A DNA stretch of 64,000 nt from Subtercola lobariae (lineage in GTDB: Bacteria > Actinomycetota > Actinomycetes > Actinomycetales > Microbacteriaceae). The DNA lies in contig NZ_BMGP01000001.1 of the NCBI RefSeq assembly GCF_014640255.1, positions 372,001-436,000 of the forward strand, in the 5' to 3' direction. A model generated the notes under the pieces. The model did not search any database. It was not told where the DNA came from and saw only the letters and a program-made list of their open reading frames with translations. Positions 15,737 through 22,390 of this stretch are shown here, piece after piece (the first letter of the stretch is position 1; each line of letters starts with the position of its first letter). A program made the position numbers and the translations under genes.

Positions 15737-16309
15737 TCAGTACACGTGCGAGGAGGCCGCGATTACGGGGGTGATGGAGCCCATGCTGTCGATGGCGTAA
15801 GCCGTGCCGGTTTGGGTGGTGCCGGCGGGGGCGCCTGAGGAGACGGTGTCGGGGATGGTGGTGAAGATGGCGCGCAGGTTGCCGGTGGAGTCGCTTTGGA
15901 AGAGGGTTTTGGCGAAGGTGAAGGTGATGATCCAGTTGATGCCGCTCGAAGTGGCCGCGGCGCCTGACCAGTTGGCGCCCAGGGTGATTGTGTAGGCGCC
16001 GGTGTAGTCGGCCTTCGGCAGGGTGACCTGCATGGTGACCGAGGTCAGAGAGATCGTGTTGCGGTAGTCGACATAAATGAACTGAATGCCTGCGTCGAGC
16101 TCTTTGCCCGAGTTTGAGAAGCCGAAGTTGTTGAAGCTGATGCGCATGGCGCTGGTGGTGGGCGGCGGGGCGGCAACGCTTGCTGACGCTGCGGGCGCGG
16201 CGACGGCGATGGCGATGACTGGAACCGACCAGGCCGCACCGCTGATGAGGGTGCGACGGCTCAGGCCGGTTTTGGGCACGACAGAGAGATCTTCGAGGGG
16301 CGAGTTCAC
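15737..16309 (-). CDS. Tat-signal exported protein, paralogue A
   Basis: The 190-residue protein carries a twin-arginine signal (SRRTLISGAAWSVPVIAIAV, then AAPAASAS) and a mature domain of about 145 residues. The mature domain is rich in beta-strand patterns (MRISFNNFGFSNSG, TMQVTLPKADYTG, WIITFTFAKTLF) with no Cys. It resembles a small Ig-like or pilin-like surface domain; no named family is recognised. The signal region is nearly identical to that of the protein at 19361-19960, and both genes have 15 bp repeat arrays upstream. Start is GTG 16309. Confidence 0.65.
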   Translation of the reverse strand: MNSPLEDLSVVPKTGLSRRTLISGAAWSVPVIAIAVAAPAASASVAAPPPTTSAMRISFNNFGFSNSGKELDAGIQFIYVDYRNTISLTSVTMQVTLPKADYTGAYTITLGANWSGAAATSSGINWIITFTFAKTLFQSDSTGNLRAIFTTIPDTVSSGAPAGTTQTGTAYAIDSMGSITPVIAASSHVY

Positions 16310-16403: not shown

Positions 16404-16416
16404 GTATACGACGCTA
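16404..16416 (-). promoter_or_regulatory. conserved block upstream of Tat paralogue A
   Basis: The plus strand reads GTATACGACGCTA here and GTATTACGACGCTA at 20001-20014, upstream of Tat paralogue B. In both places exactly 34 bases separate the block from the first 15 bp repeat. On the minus strand (the gene strand) it contains a TATAC/TAATAC element that could be a -10 box. Confidence 0.5.
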
Positions 16417-16450
16417 TGGGCTGGCGACTGTGCCGCACAGATCCCAAAAC

Positions 16451-16525
16451 CGGTGCCGCTAGAGTAGGTGCCGCTCGCTCGGGTGCGACCTTGCTGGGTG
16501 CCGCCCGACGGAGTGCCGCCGCGAC
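16451..16525. repeat. 15 bp tandem repeat array A (5 units)
   Basis: Five imperfect 15 bp units of the type GGGTGCCGCTCGCTC are seen at 16451, 16466, 16481, 16496 and 16511. The first seven bases are the most constant; units 3 and its counterparts in array B carry GTGCGACC instead of GTGCCGC. The same family of repeats forms array B at 20049-20168. Confidence 0.7.
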
Positions 16526-16564
16526 GAGGGGCACCCCGTCAGGGGCCGAATCGTGAATGCGCGG

Positions 16565-17262
16565 TCAGCTGACGCGCGACGACCGAAAGTCAGAACTGTG
16601 GATGCTGGAGCCGACGTAACGCGAGTTGGCTGCCTGCGCGCGAAGCTGGCTGGGGGTGCAGTTGTGCACGGCGGCGATGGCGCGGCGGAGTTCTGCCGGG
16701 CCGCCGAAGCCGGCGTGGTGAGCTACCTGCCCGAGGTCGAGGTGGCGGTAGGCCGGGTCGGTGAGAAGGCCCGCGGCGGTTTCGACGCGTTGGCGGCGAA
16801 TCTCGTCGGTGACCGAGGAGTTGTGCGCGGCGAAGGAGCGCTGCAGTTGGCGCAGGGAGATGTTCATGGTGCTGGCCACAGTGCTCGGGGTGAGGTCGGG
16901 GTCTGATTTGTAGGCGGCGATGTAGGCCATGGCTCGGGCGTGCAGGCTCTGCTCGGCGCTCGAAGAGATTTTGCGCATGCCCTGGGTTTCGAGCAGCAGC
17001 GAGAGGGTCATTTCGAAGAGCAGCTTCTCGACGAGGTAAGAGGGCAGGCGCTCGCGCGGGGCGTTCTCGGCGGTGACGGCGCGCACGAATTCACGCACGG
17101 GGTCGCGTAATGACAGATTCTGGCTCGCGACGATGGGCAGTTCGTAATTGCTGTCTGCGCTCTCGTCGAGAATGCGCGCGGGCACCAGAACGGAGACCAC
17201 GGTGCACGGGTTGGCGACGTAGAACAAGTAATTAGTTATTGTGGCGAAGGCGCTCGCGGGGG
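16565..17262 (-). pseudogene. AraC-family regulator, N-terminally truncated
   Basis: The frame keeps the end of the sensor domain (VVSVLVPARILDESADSNYELP, typical of the AraC_binding_2 group) and a complete AraC helix-turn-helix (MNISLRQLQRSF, FGGPAELRRAI, CTPSQLRAQ). About 100 residues of the N-terminal cupin are missing: the frame upstream of 17262 runs into the end of the glycosyltransferase gene. No convincing start codon with a ribosome site is present (candidates are TTG or GTG codons between 17190 and 17230). It is probably a remnant, or makes a DNA-binding fragment only. Confidence 0.6.
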
Positions 17263-19206
17263 TCAGTCGACGAGGCGATAGACGCGGTAGGGGCCGTCGG
17301 AGTAGACCAGCGAGTAGCTCGACAGGCGCGCCGGGTCTTCGGCCATCGAGGCGGCCACCACGTCTGCGGGCTCGCCTTCGTGCAAGAAAATCCACCGCGC
17401 GTGCGAGGCGGGCGACTTGCGCGCGTCGATGAAGTCGGCGCCGGCTGAGTAGTCGACGAGGTCGACCAGGGGCAGTTTCAAGTCGAGAACGAAGGGGTTG
17501 TTGCTCTCGTCGATGAGAATCTTGCCGCCGTCATAGTTGGCTCCGAGCCAGGTGAGGGTGCCGCGCATGTCGGAGAAGCTCGACTGCTGGTCGTGTACTT
17601 CGGCGATGACGGCGACCCGGGTGAAAGGCTCGGCAAGCATGAAGCAGGTTTGCAACGCGAGTGACAGGGCTAGCGCCAGGGCGATGGGGCGGCCGCGGTG
17701 GCGCAGGGCGGGCATCCACTCTGTCGCCGTATGACACAGGTACGCAATGAGCAGGGCCAGAAAGGGGGCGCTCGACAGGGCGTAACGGGTGTTCCACCAG
17801 CCGGGAGGCAGGGTGTGGTCGCTGTAGATGACGGTCTGACCGGTGGCGAGGCTGACGAGCGAGAACACCATGGCCACCGCCGTCAGCCAGATGAGCAGGG
17901 CACGGTTGCTGAGGCCTTCACGGGCGGCGAGGATGACCGCGCCCACACCCGCGAGTGCCAGAGTGATGGCGCCGAACGATTGCACCAGCACCCAGAAGTA
18001 CACCCACGAGCTCATGCCGAGGTTGCCTTTGGTGGTGACGAGCCCGCCCGTGGTGATGGTGGCCTGCAGAGCGGCGGCCGAGAACTGGCCGTTGATGAAC
18101 TCGAGCGGGTTGCCGTAAAGCGCCCAGTTGTACGAGAGCCACCAGGCGATAGCAGCAATGGGGAGCGCGGCGAAGGCGCTCGTCATGATGACAACACGCT
18201 TGAAGCCCTGGCGTTTGCGAAGTTGAACGATGGCGACGAAAAGGGTGCCACCGGCGATCAGCGCCCAGCCTTCGTAGCGCGACATGGTGGCCACGGCGAG
18301 GGGTATGCCGGCGAACACCGCGAGTTCGCCGGCCGAGAGCGAGCGGGGGCTGGTCATCCACCTCGCGAGGCCGGCGAAACAGCAGAGCATGCCCGCAATG
18401 AGCACGGGCTCGGTGAGGGCTGTCGTGAAGACGTAGAGGATGCCCGGGCTCGACACGAAGACCAGAACGCCGATGAGGCGGGCGTTACGCCCGAAACCCA
18501 GGCGCGCACCGATGCGGTAGAGGGCTGCGCCGGATGCGCCGAGGCAGAGGGTGCTGAGAATGGCGGCGGCGATGCCGGTGTTCCAGAGCCAGAAGTTCTG
18601 CACGAACGGCAGAAGGAGCAGGTGCGGGGCGGGCAGCCAGACGGTGCCGAGCTGCTGAAAGCCCGGTCCGGTGCTGTCGGTGATTCGGCGGGCGATGGTG
18701 AGGTGCAGCTGTTCGTCTCGGTAGGCGGTGCTGGCGCCGGAGGAGACGGAGATGATGCTGGCGATGGTTCCGATAACGATGACGGCCCAGAAGACGGCGA
18801 CGGTGCCGGGGATGCGGCGGCCACGGGCGAGCTCGGCGGGGGGTGCGTTCATGGCGCGCCAGAGGGCGGGGAGGGTGCGGGGGCGCTGTTGCTGTTGTTG
18901 CTGCTGCTGCAGAGGTTGTGGTTGCGCCAGAGCGACTGCTGGAGCGGCGACTCGGGGATGCGCATCGTCGCCGCTGCCGCCGCTCACGTGCGGGTAGGGA
19001 TGCGCTACGGCATGCGCGGCGTGGCCCGGGTGCTGAGCGTGAGGGCCTGAGGTGTCGGCTTCGGTGCTCATGCGGGGCGTGCCGTGACCGGGCGGATGCG
19101 CGGATGACGGGTGCGCCGCACGGGGGTGCGCGGCGGGCGCGGGTGGGGTGGGCGCAGCTCTGCCATCGCGCGGCTCATCTACTGTGGGCGGCCCATCGGG
19201 CAGCAT
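17263..19206 (-). CDS. GT-C type membrane glycosyltransferase with low-complexity N-terminus
   Basis: The 647-residue protein starts with about 110 Pro/Ala/His-rich residues ending in a run of eight Gln. About ten membrane helices follow, in the layout of polyprenyl-phosphate-sugar-dependent transferases (ArnT/PMT-like). The first outer loop holds an acidic motif (YRDEQLHLTIARRI) expected of the catalytic Asp/Glu. The last 130 residues form an outer domain. ATG 19206 is chosen for the GGGGGAT site just upstream; TTG 19218 is an alternative. It probably adds a sugar to a surface protein or glycan; the neighbouring Tat-exported protein is one possible acceptor (inference). Confidence 0.65.
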   Translation of the reverse strand: MLPDGPPTVDEPRDGRAAPTPPAPAAHPRAAHPSSAHPPGHGTPRMSTEADTSGPHAQHPGHAAHAVAHPYPHVSGGSGDDAHPRVAAPAVALAQPQPLQQQQQQQQRPRTLPALWRAMNAPPAELARGRRIPGTVAVFWAVIVIGTIASIISVSSGASTAYRDEQLHLTIARRITDSTGPGFQQLGTVWLPAPHLLLLPFVQNFWLWNTGIAAAILSTLCLGASGAALYRIGARLGFGRNARLIGVLVFVSSPGILYVFTTALTEPVLIAGMLCCFAGLARWMTSPRSLSAGELAVFAGIPLAVATMSRYEGWALIAGGTLFVAIVQLRKRQGFKRVVIMTSAFAALPIAAIAWWLSYNWALYGNPLEFINGQFSAAALQATITTGGLVTTKGNLGMSSWVYFWVLVQSFGAITLALAGVGAVILAAREGLSNRALLIWLTAVAMVFSLVSLATGQTVIYSDHTLPPGWWNTRYALSSAPFLALLIAYLCHTATEWMPALRHRGRPIALALALSLALQTCFMLAEPFTRVAVIAEVHDQQSSFSDMRGTLTWLGANYDGGKILIDESNNPFVLDLKLPLVDLVDYSAGADFIDARKSPASHARWIFLHEGEPADVVAASMAEDPARLSSYSLVYSDGPYRVYRLVD

Positions 19207-19360
19207 CGGATCCCCCAACCCTCGAAATAACCATAGTCAGGGTGACCCGGGGGGCGCTACGCCCCCAATGGGGTGTCGGAGCAGACGAAGGCGCGCAGGA
19301 GGGGTGGGTGCGAGGGGGTGCTGCCGGGCATCCACTCACCGCAGCGTGCGAGCGCGGGTG

Positions 19361-19960
19361 CTACTTGTTCGATGCGGGGGCGGGGCAGGCCGGGTCGGAG
19401 TAGTGCGAGTTGAAGGTGTCGACCTGAACCCAGGCGGGGCCGGTGAGGGAGAAGCCGGCGAGGTTGATGGTGAGCACGTTCGAGCCGGGGGCCAGGGGCC
19501 AGTTCTTGAAGTCGTAGTGGACGTTGTGGCTGGTTCCGTCGAGAAAGCGCACGTTCACGTCGATCTGGTTCTGCGGGATGGTGCGGTACGTGATGACGAG
19601 TTCGTGCTGCTCGACGAGGTATTGGCCGTTGTCGTTCTGGCCGTTGATGCTCGAGGGGCCGCCGCAGATGACCGGGGTCCAGGTGGAAGGGGGTGGGGGC
19701 GGTGAGGTGGTAGAGGCGGCGGCCGCGGGGGCTGCGACGGCGATGGCGATGACCGGAACCGACCAGGCGGCGCCCGTGATGAGGGTGCGGCGGGGGATGC
19801 GGCGTGGTGGGGCTTGGGTGCCGGTGTCGGTGCTGGAGGGGCCCGGGTTGGCCGAGGCGCTCGCGGCGGGGGCTGTGTTCGCGGGTGCTGCGGATGCTTC
19901 GGGGGCAGGGTTGTGGGTGCGCAGAGTCATGGGTTCCGTCGGTGTCGGTGGCGCGAACAT
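19361..19960 (-). CDS. Tat-signal exported protein, paralogue B
   Basis: The 199-residue protein has a Pro/Ala-rich leader, a twin-arginine signal (PRRTLITGAAWSVPVIAIAV, then AAPAAAAS) and a mature domain of about 110 residues with beta patterns (YLVEQHELVITYRTIPQNQI, VLTINLAGFSLTG). Two Cys, near the start and end of the mature domain, could join by a disulfide. No named family recognised. It shares the signal and the upstream layout with the protein at 15737-16309. Start ATG 19960 has GAGG close upstream; ATG 19930 is possible. Confidence 0.6.
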   Translation of the reverse strand: MFAPPTPTEPMTLRTHNPAPEASAAPANTAPAASASANPGPSSTDTGTQAPPRRIPRRTLITGAAWSVPVIAIAVAAPAAAASTTSPPPPPSTWTPVICGGPSSINGQNDNGQYLVEQHELVITYRTIPQNQIDVNVRFLDGTSHNVHYDFKNWPLAPGSNVLTINLAGFSLTGPAWVQVDTFNSHYSDPACPAPASNK

Positions 19961-20000
19961 GGGCCTCGAGCTGGCTTCGCTGCGTCAAACCCAGTCGGAT

Positions 20001-20014
20001 GTATTACGACGCTA
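20001..20014 (-). promoter_or_regulatory. conserved block upstream of Tat paralogue B
   Basis: Reads GTATTACGACGCTA on the plus strand, one base longer than the block at 16404-16416, and is followed by the same 34-base spacing to array B. It lies 41 bases upstream of the gene start. Confidence 0.5.
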
Positions 20015-20048
20015 ATTCGCCGCCTGACCAGCACAAAAGCCCTAAAGC

Positions 20049-20168
20049 GAGTGCCGCTCGGCTGGGTGCCGCTCGCTTGGGTGCGACTTTGCCGAGTGCC
20101 GCCGGTGCGGGTGCCGCCCGCTCGGGTGCGACCCGGCTGGGTGTGACCTTGAGGGTGCCGCTCTCGCT
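20049..20168. repeat. 15 bp tandem repeat array B (about 8 units)
   Basis: Units start at 20049, 20064, 20079, 20094, 20109, 20124, 20139 (14 bp) and 20153 (16 bp), with the pattern GGGTGCCGCTCGCTT. Units 3, 6 and 7 have the GTGCGAC or GTGTGAC variant. It lies between the divergent Tat paralogue B and HprK-like genes and matches array A. Confidence 0.7.
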
Positions 20169-20228
20169 AGCGCCGCTCGTTTGAGGGCTCGCAACGGCGG
20201 GGTGGCGCGGGCACGGTAGTTTGGGGGC

Positions 20229-21485
20229 ATGGGGTCGTGGGTCACGCTGAGTGCGCTGGGGGTCGAGTTCGCCGTGGCGCTCGAGGGCGTGGGCGAAGCG
20301 GATGCCCGGCAGTTCGTCGAGGCGTGGCAGTGGTGTGGGGCACGCTCGACTGACTCAGTGCCCAGGGGGGCCACGATCATCCGCGCCGCCGTCGACGATG
20401 GGCGAAGTGGCCGGGGTGCATCGGGCGGAGATCGCGGCGCGGCCCGAGGCGACGACCGCGGGGTGGCGGCGGCCGAGCCGGGTTCGGGCGCGCGCGAGCA
20501 GCGCATTACGGCGCACTCGTACCGAGCGCTCGCCGACCATTTGTCGGGGTTGATCACGCGACTCGCGATTGATGAACGGCGCGGCGATTTGCTGATGTTT
20601 CACGCCGGCGGGGTGGCCGACCCGGAGACGGGGGCGGTGATTGCGTTCATCGGTCCGTCGGGGCGGGGCAAGACCACGGCGTCTATCGCGTTGGGGTCGG
20701 TGTTCGACTATGTGACCGATGAGACGCTGGCGGTGCGCGATGATCTCGAGGTGATTGCGTACGGAAAGCCGCTGTCGGTGAAACCCGCGCCGCCCGAGGC
20801 GTTCAAAGACCAGGTTTCGCCGACCGCGCTGGGGTTGAACCGGCCGGGGGCTGTGCCGTTGCGGTTGGTGGGCGTGGTGATGCTCGACCGGCAGGCTTCG
20901 TTCGAGGCCGAACGGTTGCCGAGCGTGCGGCCGGTGGGGGTTGCGGAGTCGGTGGAGGAGCTGGTTCCGCAGATCAGTTATCTGCCCGAGCGGGAGCGTC
21001 CGCTGCAACGGTTGGTCGAGGTGCTGGGCGCGTGCGGAGGGCTGCAGCAGGTGACGTATGGGGAGGCGGCGACGCTGCCCGAGGTGTTCGCGAAGTTGTT
21101 CGCGGCGGCCGCGGCGCGCGGGGCGGGTGCGGGTGTGGCGGATGACGTCGGTGCCGCTGAGTCGGGCGGCCGTGCGACGGCAACAGGTGCGGGCGAAGTG
21201 GATGCTCGGGGCGGGGTCGAAGGGCTGCAGGCGTCGTACATCGACGCCGTTCGTGACGGGGAAGCGCTCGTGGTACTGAGCGGCACCACTGTGCGCGTGC
21301 TGGGCGGGATCGCGCCGACGATTGTGGAGGAGACTTCGGGGGCGGCTCTGACGATGGCGGAGGTGGTTCGACGGGTGGTCGAGGTGCATGGAAGCCCCGG
21401 TGGGGCCGACGCGGGGGAGCTGGTTGCGGCCGCGGTTCAGGAGCTGACGGAGATCGGGTTGCTGAAAGTGGTTGGTGCGAAATGA
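20229..21485 (+). CDS. HprK-related kinase fused to a C-terminal PqqD-like domain
   Basis: The 418-residue protein has a P-loop (AFIGPSGRGKTTASIALG, GPSGRGKT at 142-149) preceded by HAGGVAD, and an acidic TDETLAV at 163-169. This is the layout of HPr-kinase-related proteins found in peptide-modification and polysaccharide loci. The last 80 residues or so (SYIDAVRDGEALVVLSGTTVRVL, then ELTEIGLLKVV) match a PqqD-like domain, so kinase and peptide-binding element are on one chain. An Ala/Gly-rich linker (about 292-330) joins them. The stop overlaps the signal peptidase start (ATGA). The ribosome site is unusually close to ATG 20229, so the true start could be slightly downstream. Substrate unknown. 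Confidence 0.7.
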   Translation: MGSWVTLSALGVEFAVALEGVGEADARQFVEAWQWCGARSTDSVPRGATIIRAAVDDGRSGRGASGGDRGAARGDDRGVAAAEPGSGAREQRITAHSYRALADHLSGLITRLAIDERRGDLLMFHAGGVADPETGAVIAFIGPSGRGKTTASIALGSVFDYVTDETLAVRDDLEVIAYGKPLSVKPAPPEAFKDQVSPTALGLNRPGAVPLRLVGVVMLDRQASFEAERLPSVRPVGVAESVEELVPQISYLPERERPLQRLVEVLGACGGLQQVTYGEAATLPEVFAKLFAAAAARGAGAGVADDVGAAESGGRATATGAGEVDARGGVEGLQASYIDAVRDGEALVVLSGTTVRVLGGIAPTIVEETSGAALTMAEVVRRVVEVHGSPGGADAGELVAAAVQELTEIGLLKVVGAK

Positions 21486-22390
21486 GTGAGGGTGCGGGTG
21501 CTGGTGGTGCGGGAGAGTCAGGCGGGGTCGGCGGTCGCGCAGCGGGCGCGGATGCCGCGGCAGCGGGCGCGGGGTCTCGGGAGCCGCAGGATGCGCGCAC
21601 GAGTGGAGCGACCGAACGGGGTCAGGCGGTAGGGGTCGGCGGCGCCGTGGACGCGGCTGCGACATCTGCGCCGAAAGGGGGTCGTTCGGGCGGGCGACGC
21701 ACGGGCATCCGGCGCATCACGGGGAGTTTTTGGTTCAACCTGGTTGCCGCGTTCGTGGTTTTGGCGCTGCTGCAGGCGTTTGTGGTGAAGTTGTATTACG
21801 TTCCGTCGGGGTCGATGCAGCAGACGCTGGCGATCGGCGACCGCATTCTGGTGGATCGGGTTTCGTTCGAGTTCGGCGCGAACCCGAAGCCGGGCGATGT
21901 GGTGGTGTTCACGGCGTCTGATCTGTGGGGCGAGCAGGCGCCTGTGCCGTCGAATCCGTTCTCGTATGCGCTGAAATGGTTGGGCGGGGTGGTGGGCGTG
22001 GGGCCGTCGCTCGACCATACGCTCGTGAAACGGGTGATCGCGGGGCCGGGGCAGACGGTGTCGTGCTGCGATTCGCAGGGTCGGGTGAGCGTCGACGGGG
22101 TGCCGCTCGATGAGCCGTACATCTACCAGGATTACGCGTACGAGCCGGGGGTGCTCGACTGCACGACGGTTCCGGAGTCGCAGCGGTGCTTCCCCACGGT
22201 CACCGTGCCGGCGGGGCAGTATTTCGTGATGGGCGATCACCGGTCGAACTCGAACGATTCGATCTACGCGTGCCGGGGCAGGCCCCCCACGGCGTCGACG
22301 TCTGACTGTTTGAAGATGGTGGGGCGCAACGACATTGTGGGGCGTGCGTTCGCGGTAGTGCTGCCGCCGGGTCATTGGCGGGGGCTGTAG
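21482..22390 (+). CDS. lepB: signal peptidase I
   Basis: This membrane-bound Ser/Lys peptidase cuts Sec and Tat signal peptides outside the cell. The 302-residue protein has a disordered Gly/Ala-rich head of about 75 residues, one membrane helix (LVAAFVVLALLQAFVV), the nucleophile in YVPSGSMQQTL (Ser111), the general base in HTLVKRVIAGPGQ (Lys183), and GDHRSNSNDSI. A Cys pair at 195-196 and further Cys in the outer domain are notable. It is coupled to the HprK/PqqD gene by a 4 bp overlap, which suggests a dedicated role beside general secretion. Confidence 0.9.
   Translation: MSEGAGAGGAGESGGVGGRAAGADAAAAGAGSREPQDARTSGATERGQAVGVGGAVDAAATSAPKGGRSGGRRTGIRRITGSFWFNLVAAFVVLALLQAFVVKLYYVPSGSMQQTLAIGDRILVDRVSFEFGANPKPGDVVVFTASDLWGEQAPVPSNPFSYALKWLGGVVGVGPSLDHTLVKRVIAGPGQTVSCCDSQGRVSVDGVPLDEPYIYQDYAYEPGVLDCTTVPESQRCFPTVTVPAGQYFVMGDHRSNSNDSIYACRGRPPTASTSDCLKMVGRNDIVGRAFAVVLPPGHWRGL

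What the first reader, a model, noticed from the sequence alone, without database searches (positions are those of the whole stretch)
16404..20168. Two paralogous Tat-protein genes share a 15 bp repeat array and a conserved block at identical spacing
Upstream of the Tat-signal genes ending at 15737 and 19361 lies the same layout: a block GTATACGACGCTA (or GTATTACGACGCTA), exactly 34 bases of poorly conserved sequence, then an array of 15 bp units (5 units at 16451-16525, about 8 units at 20049-20168). The units alternate between GTGCCGC and GTGCGAC types. A 15 bp period is 1.5 helical turns, so successive sites would face opposite sides of the DNA. This looks like a regulatory array controlling a set of exported proteins, perhaps with variable copy number. 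A truncated AraC regulator lies next to array A.
Basis: seen in the sequence. Interest (0 to 1): 0.8.

Follow-up and report, generated by a model that had tools for sequence, protein, structure and literature searches.

The report
Shared activator-type repeat array, two promoters
Two neighbouring genes for exported proteins in a Subtercola bacterium carry the same ladder of 15-letter DNA repeats at a fixed distance from their putative promoters; relatives carry it too, and it looks like a multi-copy landing site for an AraC-type gene activator.

Summary
Both arrays exist, at the same distance from the shared block, and are not chance. On the gene strand each unit is GCAC-N6-RGSGS (15 bp). The promoter-proximal unit (GCACnnnCTTTAGGG in B-type promoters, GCACCGGTTTTGGGA in A) ends exactly 25 nt before a -10-like hexamer (TAGCGT/TACAGT) in 4 of 4 intact promoters found: A and B here, and the B orthologue in two other Subtercola genomes. 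The spacer sequence is unrelated between A and B (6/25 identical); its length is fixed.

Unit number differs between species. G373 keeps a worn A array although its gene A is only a remnant. Arrays were found in 3 of 12 Subtercola genomes. Only the Tat signal peptides of A and B align.

Best reading: contiguous AraC/XylS-type half-sites abutting the -35 of activator-dependent promoters, most likely bound by the (here N-terminally truncated) AraC-family protein encoded beside array A. Operator role about 0.8; this AraC as binder about 0.45. Against the AraC assignment: related cassettes in another genus show 21-bp-spaced CGAC pairs, not 15-bp arrays.

The parts
15737..16309 (-). Gene A: Tat-signal exported protein, 190 aa, mature part of unknown fold
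   Evidence: no Pfam family above cut-off; structure model too poor to use
   Evidence: promoter role inferred
16417..16441 (-). 25-nt spacer; length equal to B, sequence not (6/25 identical)
16442..16456 (-). Promoter-proximal unit of array A, GCACCGGTTTTGGGA
16457..16531 (-). Array A, units -1 to -5 (the last one degenerate), 15 bp each
16565..17242 (-). AraC-family regulator, N-terminal part lost compared with G373; homology 16631-17242; candidate binder of the arrays
19361..19930 (-). Gene B: Tat-signal exported protein; start ATG at 19930 by conservation (MTLR/MALR)
   Evidence: promoter role inferred
20015..20039 (-). 25-nt spacer of B (20/25 and 21/25 identical to its two orthologues)
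20040..20054 (-). Promoter-proximal unit of array B, GCACTCGCTTTAGGG
20055..20184 (-). Array B: units -1 to -6 in register, then about two degenerate units after a 14-bp unit

Best explanation
The arrays are upstream activator operators built from contiguous, head-to-tail AraC/XylS-type half-sites. Each 15-bp unit has a box A (GCAC), six loosely conserved bases, and a box B (RGSGS). The units all point towards the gene. The last one ends about 2 bp upstream of a poor -35 and 25 nt upstream of the -10 hexamer, the place where an AraC-type activator touches RNA polymerase. The most likely binder is the AraC-family protein encoded beside array A. The extra units would raise local occupancy or cooperativity, so unit number may tune output. 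Shown: the arrays, the fixed geometry, presence in three genomes, differing copy number, the unit's conservation profile, and an AraC gene at the same locus here and in G373. Inferred: transcription start, activation, identity of the binder, effect of copy number.
For: Unit profile over 29 units of five arrays: columns 1-6 and 12-15 conserved, 7-11 loose apart from a preference for C in column 10. With a fixed choice of five units from each of four arrays (three of them orthologous, so not independent), differences are unevenly spread over columns (p about 1e-5), as expected for selected boxes rather than neutral slippage. The layout matches described AraC half-sites: XylS, two 15-bp direct repeats with box A and box B 6 bp apart (one passage of PMC5481539); CphR of Rhodococcus, 15-bp repeats TGCA-N6-GGNTA at -35 to -49 and -55 to -69 (passages of PMC6205950); MarA consensus 15-mer beginning GCAC (passages of PMC5684230). 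Spacing to the -10 hexamer is 25 nt in 4 of 4 intact promoters although A and B spacers share only 6/25 bases. The AraC protein has an HTH_18 domain. Its close homologue (72-75% id) is found in G000, G373 and G398, the same 3 of 12 Subtercola genomes with arrays; the next best by E-value is 43% (G153). Own-versus-G373 dN/dS is 0.24. In another genus, AraC homologues lie within about 2.5 kb of a Tat-signal gene of the same signal-peptide type in 5 of 6 loci fetched.
Against: No binding or expression data. The array genomes share neighbouring genes (own and G373 over the whole block; G398 only around B, its AraC being on another contig), so co-occurrence is not independent evidence. G286, which has no array match, holds a decayed AraC fragment (57% id over 49 residues, then a stop). 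The AraC gene has lost its N-terminal part here; in G398 it lies in two pieces of one 5.8-kb contig and also lacks that part. Homologous cassettes do not carry the unit: in six Tat-gene promoters (five of another genus and G373's own cassette gene) the best unit-profile hit was reached by 97, 179, 91, 9, 116 and 151 of 200 composition shuffles, while a CGAC pair 21 bp apart stands in 5 of 5 of the other genus (and once in G373, elsewhere in the window scanned), although the AraC recognition helices look alike (the 21-bp pair was spotted by eye and has no shuffle control). Known AraC operators are pairs about 20-21 bp apart (20; 21 recalled), not contiguous 15-bp arrays. The distance to the -10 is 25 nt, against 21-22 for AggR (passage of PMC6392122), though site ends are defined differently. 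Single units are common by chance: 46 profile hits of at least 9 bits in the window, 35 of them outside the arrays.
Confidence: 0.48

Rival explanations
1. The arrays are operators of activator-dependent promoters, but the binder is another transcription factor encoded elsewhere.
For: Fixed promoter geometry and box-like unit profile ask only for some sequence-specific activator. The AraC gene is truncated here, and homologous AraC cassettes in another genus lack the unit.
Against: No other candidate regulator was identified, but no systematic search for one was possible. The OmpR-type response regulator downstream of B in G373 and G398 has no match at E<=1e-40 in this genome, and is present in three array-less genomes (G090, G286, G319).
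Confidence: 0.27
2. The arrays are repressor or antenna sites: many copies soak up or wrap a regulator and keep the promoters off.
For: Many contiguous units; such layouts can serve repression or titration (general knowledge, no call).
Against: Units sit upstream of the putative promoter, not over -10 or the start; the putative -35 is poor by eye (sequence), which suits activation.
Confidence: 0.1
3. A neutral tandem repeat grown by replication slippage, carried along when promoter DNA was copied between A and B.
For: Unit number changes between species and one unit is 14 bp; A and B arrays match at 55/75 positions.
Against: Conserved boxes and loose middle within the unit; spacer sequence lost but spacer length kept; array kept at B in three genomes although own B differs from G398 and G373 at 21 and 23 of 75 array positions (G398 and G373 differ at 7).
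Confidence: 0.1
4. The repeat encodes a short repetitive peptide (five codons per unit, for example ERHPL).
For: A frame stays open through the B arrays of own, G398 and G373 and stops inside the last unit.
Against: No clear excess of change at third codon positions: 18, 24 or 25 of 67 by frame, added up from the column counts (a third would be 22). Long open frames are common at this G+C.
Confidence: 0.03

Closest known systems
XylS/Pm operator (AraC/XylS family)
   Same: 15-bp direct-repeat half-sites, 4-bp box A and 3' box B separated by 6 bp (one passage); orientation towards the promoter and proximal site near -35 (recalled)
   Different: Two half-sites in XylS; here 5 to about 11 contiguous units with no gap
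CphR operator, Rhodococcus (actinobacterial AraC type)
   Same: 15-bp imperfect direct repeats, 4-N6-5 layout; proximal site -35 to -49 against about -38 to -52 inferred here (passages)
   Different: Two sites 20 bp apart, box A TGCA; here 15-bp period, box A GCAC
MarA marbox
   Same: 15-mer consensus beginning GCAC (passages); one-monomer binding recalled
   Different: 3' half differs (consensus ends tgctaaa, here RGSGS); no contiguous arrays in the passages seen
AggR-dependent promoters
   Same: One AraC-type site at a fixed distance from -10 suffices (passages)
   Different: 21-22 bp to -10; the repeats at aggD are hexamers downstream of -10 and did not appear to influence activity

Membership tests
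AraC/XylS-type operator | 15-bp bipartite half-site, box A - 6 bp - box B | tested here: met
   Conservation profile of 29 units against passages
AraC/XylS-type operator | Half-sites are direct repeats in one orientation towards the promoter | tested here: met
AraC/XylS-type operator | Two half-sites about 20-21 bp apart (two helical turns) | tested here: not met
   Period is 15 bp, contiguous
AraC/XylS-type operator | Proximal half-site at or overlapping -35 | tested here: inconclusive
   Ends 25 nt before the -10-like hexamer in 4 of 4 intact promoters; transcription start not mapped
AraC/XylS-type operator | Bound by an AraC-family protein | not testable with these tools
   AraC-family gene adjacent; binding needs experiment
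Tat-exported proteins A and B as paralogues | Homology beyond the signal peptide | tested here: not met
   BLASTP aligns only the signal peptide; 45 residues of it
Operator of the OmpR-family response regulator next to B | Regulator present wherever the array is | tested here: not met
   No match at E<=1e-40 in this genome

The most novel reading that the evidence does not exclude
AraC-type DNA-binding proteins, including a form that has lost its N-terminal part, assemble head-to-tail as monomers on 5 to 11 gap-free 15-bp half-sites, each turned about 150 degrees from the last, forming a spiral activator filament next to RNA polymerase; slippage in unit number sets promoter strength of exported proteins.
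Probability: 0.15. Interest if true: 0.65.

Novelty: new variant of a known kind. Interest (0 to 1): 0.45.

Why it matters
Pairs of AraC half-sites are well known; long gap-free runs did not turn up in the paper listings (one search returned no paper; of the others only listings and the passages named here were seen). If right, it is a natural test of how operator copy number sets activator-dependent expression. It also gives a first handle on how Microbacteriaceae may control Tat-signal proteins of the RR...GAAWSVPVIA type, for which no function was found here.

Tried and rejected
Response regulator as binder: rejected, no match at E<=1e-40 in this genome and present in three array-less ones. 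Peptide-coding repeat: column counts show no clear third-position excess. Wider distribution: block core plus unit matched 5 of 398 family genomes; the four besides this one are single hits with other spacer lengths, and the reversed control pattern hit more genomes than that. Last unit plus two units with up to 1 mismatch matched 4 of 398: two hits here, two in G373 (B, and the worn A array with 1 mismatch), and one each in G246 and G247; the reversed control hit more genomes than these, so the last two count as background. The G246 site lies between what look by eye like a LacI-type gene and an exported-protein gene but has no TANNNT at the right place (read). G398 was not among the 398 genomes; it was found. 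(12 genomes, 32 windows, 11 for the reversed control): of 23 windows in other Subtercola genomes, 22 had loci; 6 belong to the arrays of G373 and G398 beside a Tat gene, the other 16 show no Tat motif in their locus (about 2.3 to 3 kb) and lie in frames open for 367 or more codons; one window (in G373) was not examined. The gene A homologue in G395 (38% id) has no array upstream, judged by eye. The worn A array of G373 is the weakest: 4 of 1000 shuffles reached its lag-15 value. Structure models of A and B were too poor to search (mean pLDDT 37.8 and 44.9). Single-unit scanning is not discriminating (46 hits in the window). Paper searches listed nothing of this kind.
Full report
Check of the observation. 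GTGCSRC recurs at a strict 15-bp step five times from 16453 and six times from 20051, and these are the only such runs of two or more in the window on either strand. 0 of 1000 dinucleotide shuffles reached the lag-15 self-similarity of A, and 0 of 1000 that of B. In the whole genome the three-unit pattern is found at A (3 windows), at B (4) and at two places inside long open frames read as coding repeats, against 1 reversed-control hit; block core plus unit is found at A and B only, again with 1 control hit.

What the layout is. Both genes are on the minus strand, so the array is upstream of the gene. On that strand the unit is GCAC-N6-RGSGS, with columns 1-6 and 12-15 conserved and columns 7-11 looser over 29 units from five arrays. 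The number of units taken per array was chosen by where the pattern fades, so repeats the test with a fixed five units from four arrays (20 units): p about 1e-5, with the reservation that three arrays are orthologous. The unit next to the gene has its own 3' half: GCACnnnCTTTAGGG in the three B-type promoters, GCACCGGTTTTGGGA in A, GCACTCCTTTTAGGA in the worn A array of G373. In the four intact promoters it is followed by exactly 25 nt and then TAGCGT (A and B) or TACAGT (G373 and G398). A and B share 55/75 bases over five units, 10/15 in the last unit, 6/25 in the spacer, 11/16 in the -10 region and 6/40 downstream: spacer length is kept while its sequence is not.

Relatives. The contig of one relative names the genus Subtercola (JAODBC010000039.1, MAG Subtercola sp. 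RYN_58, taken to be the G398 contig by its length of 131378). Of 12 Subtercola genomes, G373 and G398 also carry arrays, each upstream of the orthologue of gene B. By eye, units in register number about 6-7 (own B), about 11 counting CCAC forms (G398) and 6 (G373), with worn units beyond. In G373 the A locus keeps a worn array whose A gene survives only as a C-terminal remnant. Gene B itself matched in 2 of 398 family genomes at E<=1e-12, plus G398 (the only locus confirmed in that scan).

Genes. A and B align only over the Tat signal peptide. Neither reaches a Pfam cut-off. B looks all-beta in a poor model. Of 14 distinct Tat-signal genes scanned upstream, 9 have no array.

Who binds. The AraC-family gene beside array A has close homologues only in G373 and G398 among the 12 genomes (74-75% id; next best by E-value 43% in G153; a decayed 49-residue fragment at 57% in G286). 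In G373 its frame extends about 80 codons further upstream; here that part is missing and a membrane-protein gene (17263-19218) covers the place. The remaining frame is intact, with own-versus-G373 dN/dS of 0.24, within the 0.08-0.41 seen for the other six genes compared; part of that constraint may predate the truncation. The 15-bp 4-N6-5 layout and the place next to -35 match passages on XylS and CphR, and the GCAC start matches the MarA 15-mer. Against this, six genomes of another genus carry a 36-46% AraC homologue; in the five with a Tat gene nearby, and in G373's own cassette gene, no upstream unit stands out (shuffles reaching the best hit: 9 to 179 of 200; the lowest, L115, is borderline), but a CGAC pair 21 bp apart stands in 5 of 5 of that genus, a spacing typical of AraC dimers (recalled). 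Either the Subtercola arrays are a lineage-specific change of operator, or another protein binds them. The response regulator next to B in G373 and G398 is ruled out as a required partner, having no match at E<=1e-40 here.

Verdict. A real, conserved promoter-linked array; operator role about 0.8, this AraC as the binder about 0.45, combined statement 0.48. It works like an AraC/XylS operator but is not filed as one, because the 20-21 bp spacing of known pairs was tested and not met.

Noticed in passing
L112-L117 (another Microbacteriaceae genus) and L074:17278-18955: A Tat-signal protein (72-79% id to the G373 one), a MauE/thioredoxin-like membrane protein (named by eye) and the AraC regulator lie together in 5 of 6 fetched loci of another genus (in L114 in another order) and in G373; the regulator-exported protein link spans genera.
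   Followed up: partly
L112-L115 and L117, upstream of the Tat gene: A CGAC pair exactly 21 bp apart in 5 of 5 promoters of that cassette (no shuffle control; L115 and L117 are near-identical), possibly the dimer site of the full-length AraC.
   Followed up: partly
window 20229-22390; L074:4097-6698; L076; L112-L114: An HprK-kinase-like gene (named by eye) and a signal peptidase I gene lie beside gene B here, in G373 and in G398; signal peptidase homologues lie in the same 18-kb stretch as the AraC cassette in 3, and HprK-like ones in 2, of 6 loci of the other genus.
   Followed up: no
L021:800-1321 with the adjoining array remnant: In G373 a different Tat-signal gene in opposite orientation sits between AraC and the worn array A, and gene A there is reduced to a C-terminal remnant.
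   Followed up: partly
window 19977-19988 (minus strand): TTGACGCAGCGA, 20 nt downstream of the -10 hexamer of B, is kept at the same distance in all three B orthologues; role unknown.
   Followed up: no
L012:4142-6073: A protein whose N-terminal repeat GTVAS gives the same 15-bp DNA pattern by coding.
   Followed up: yes
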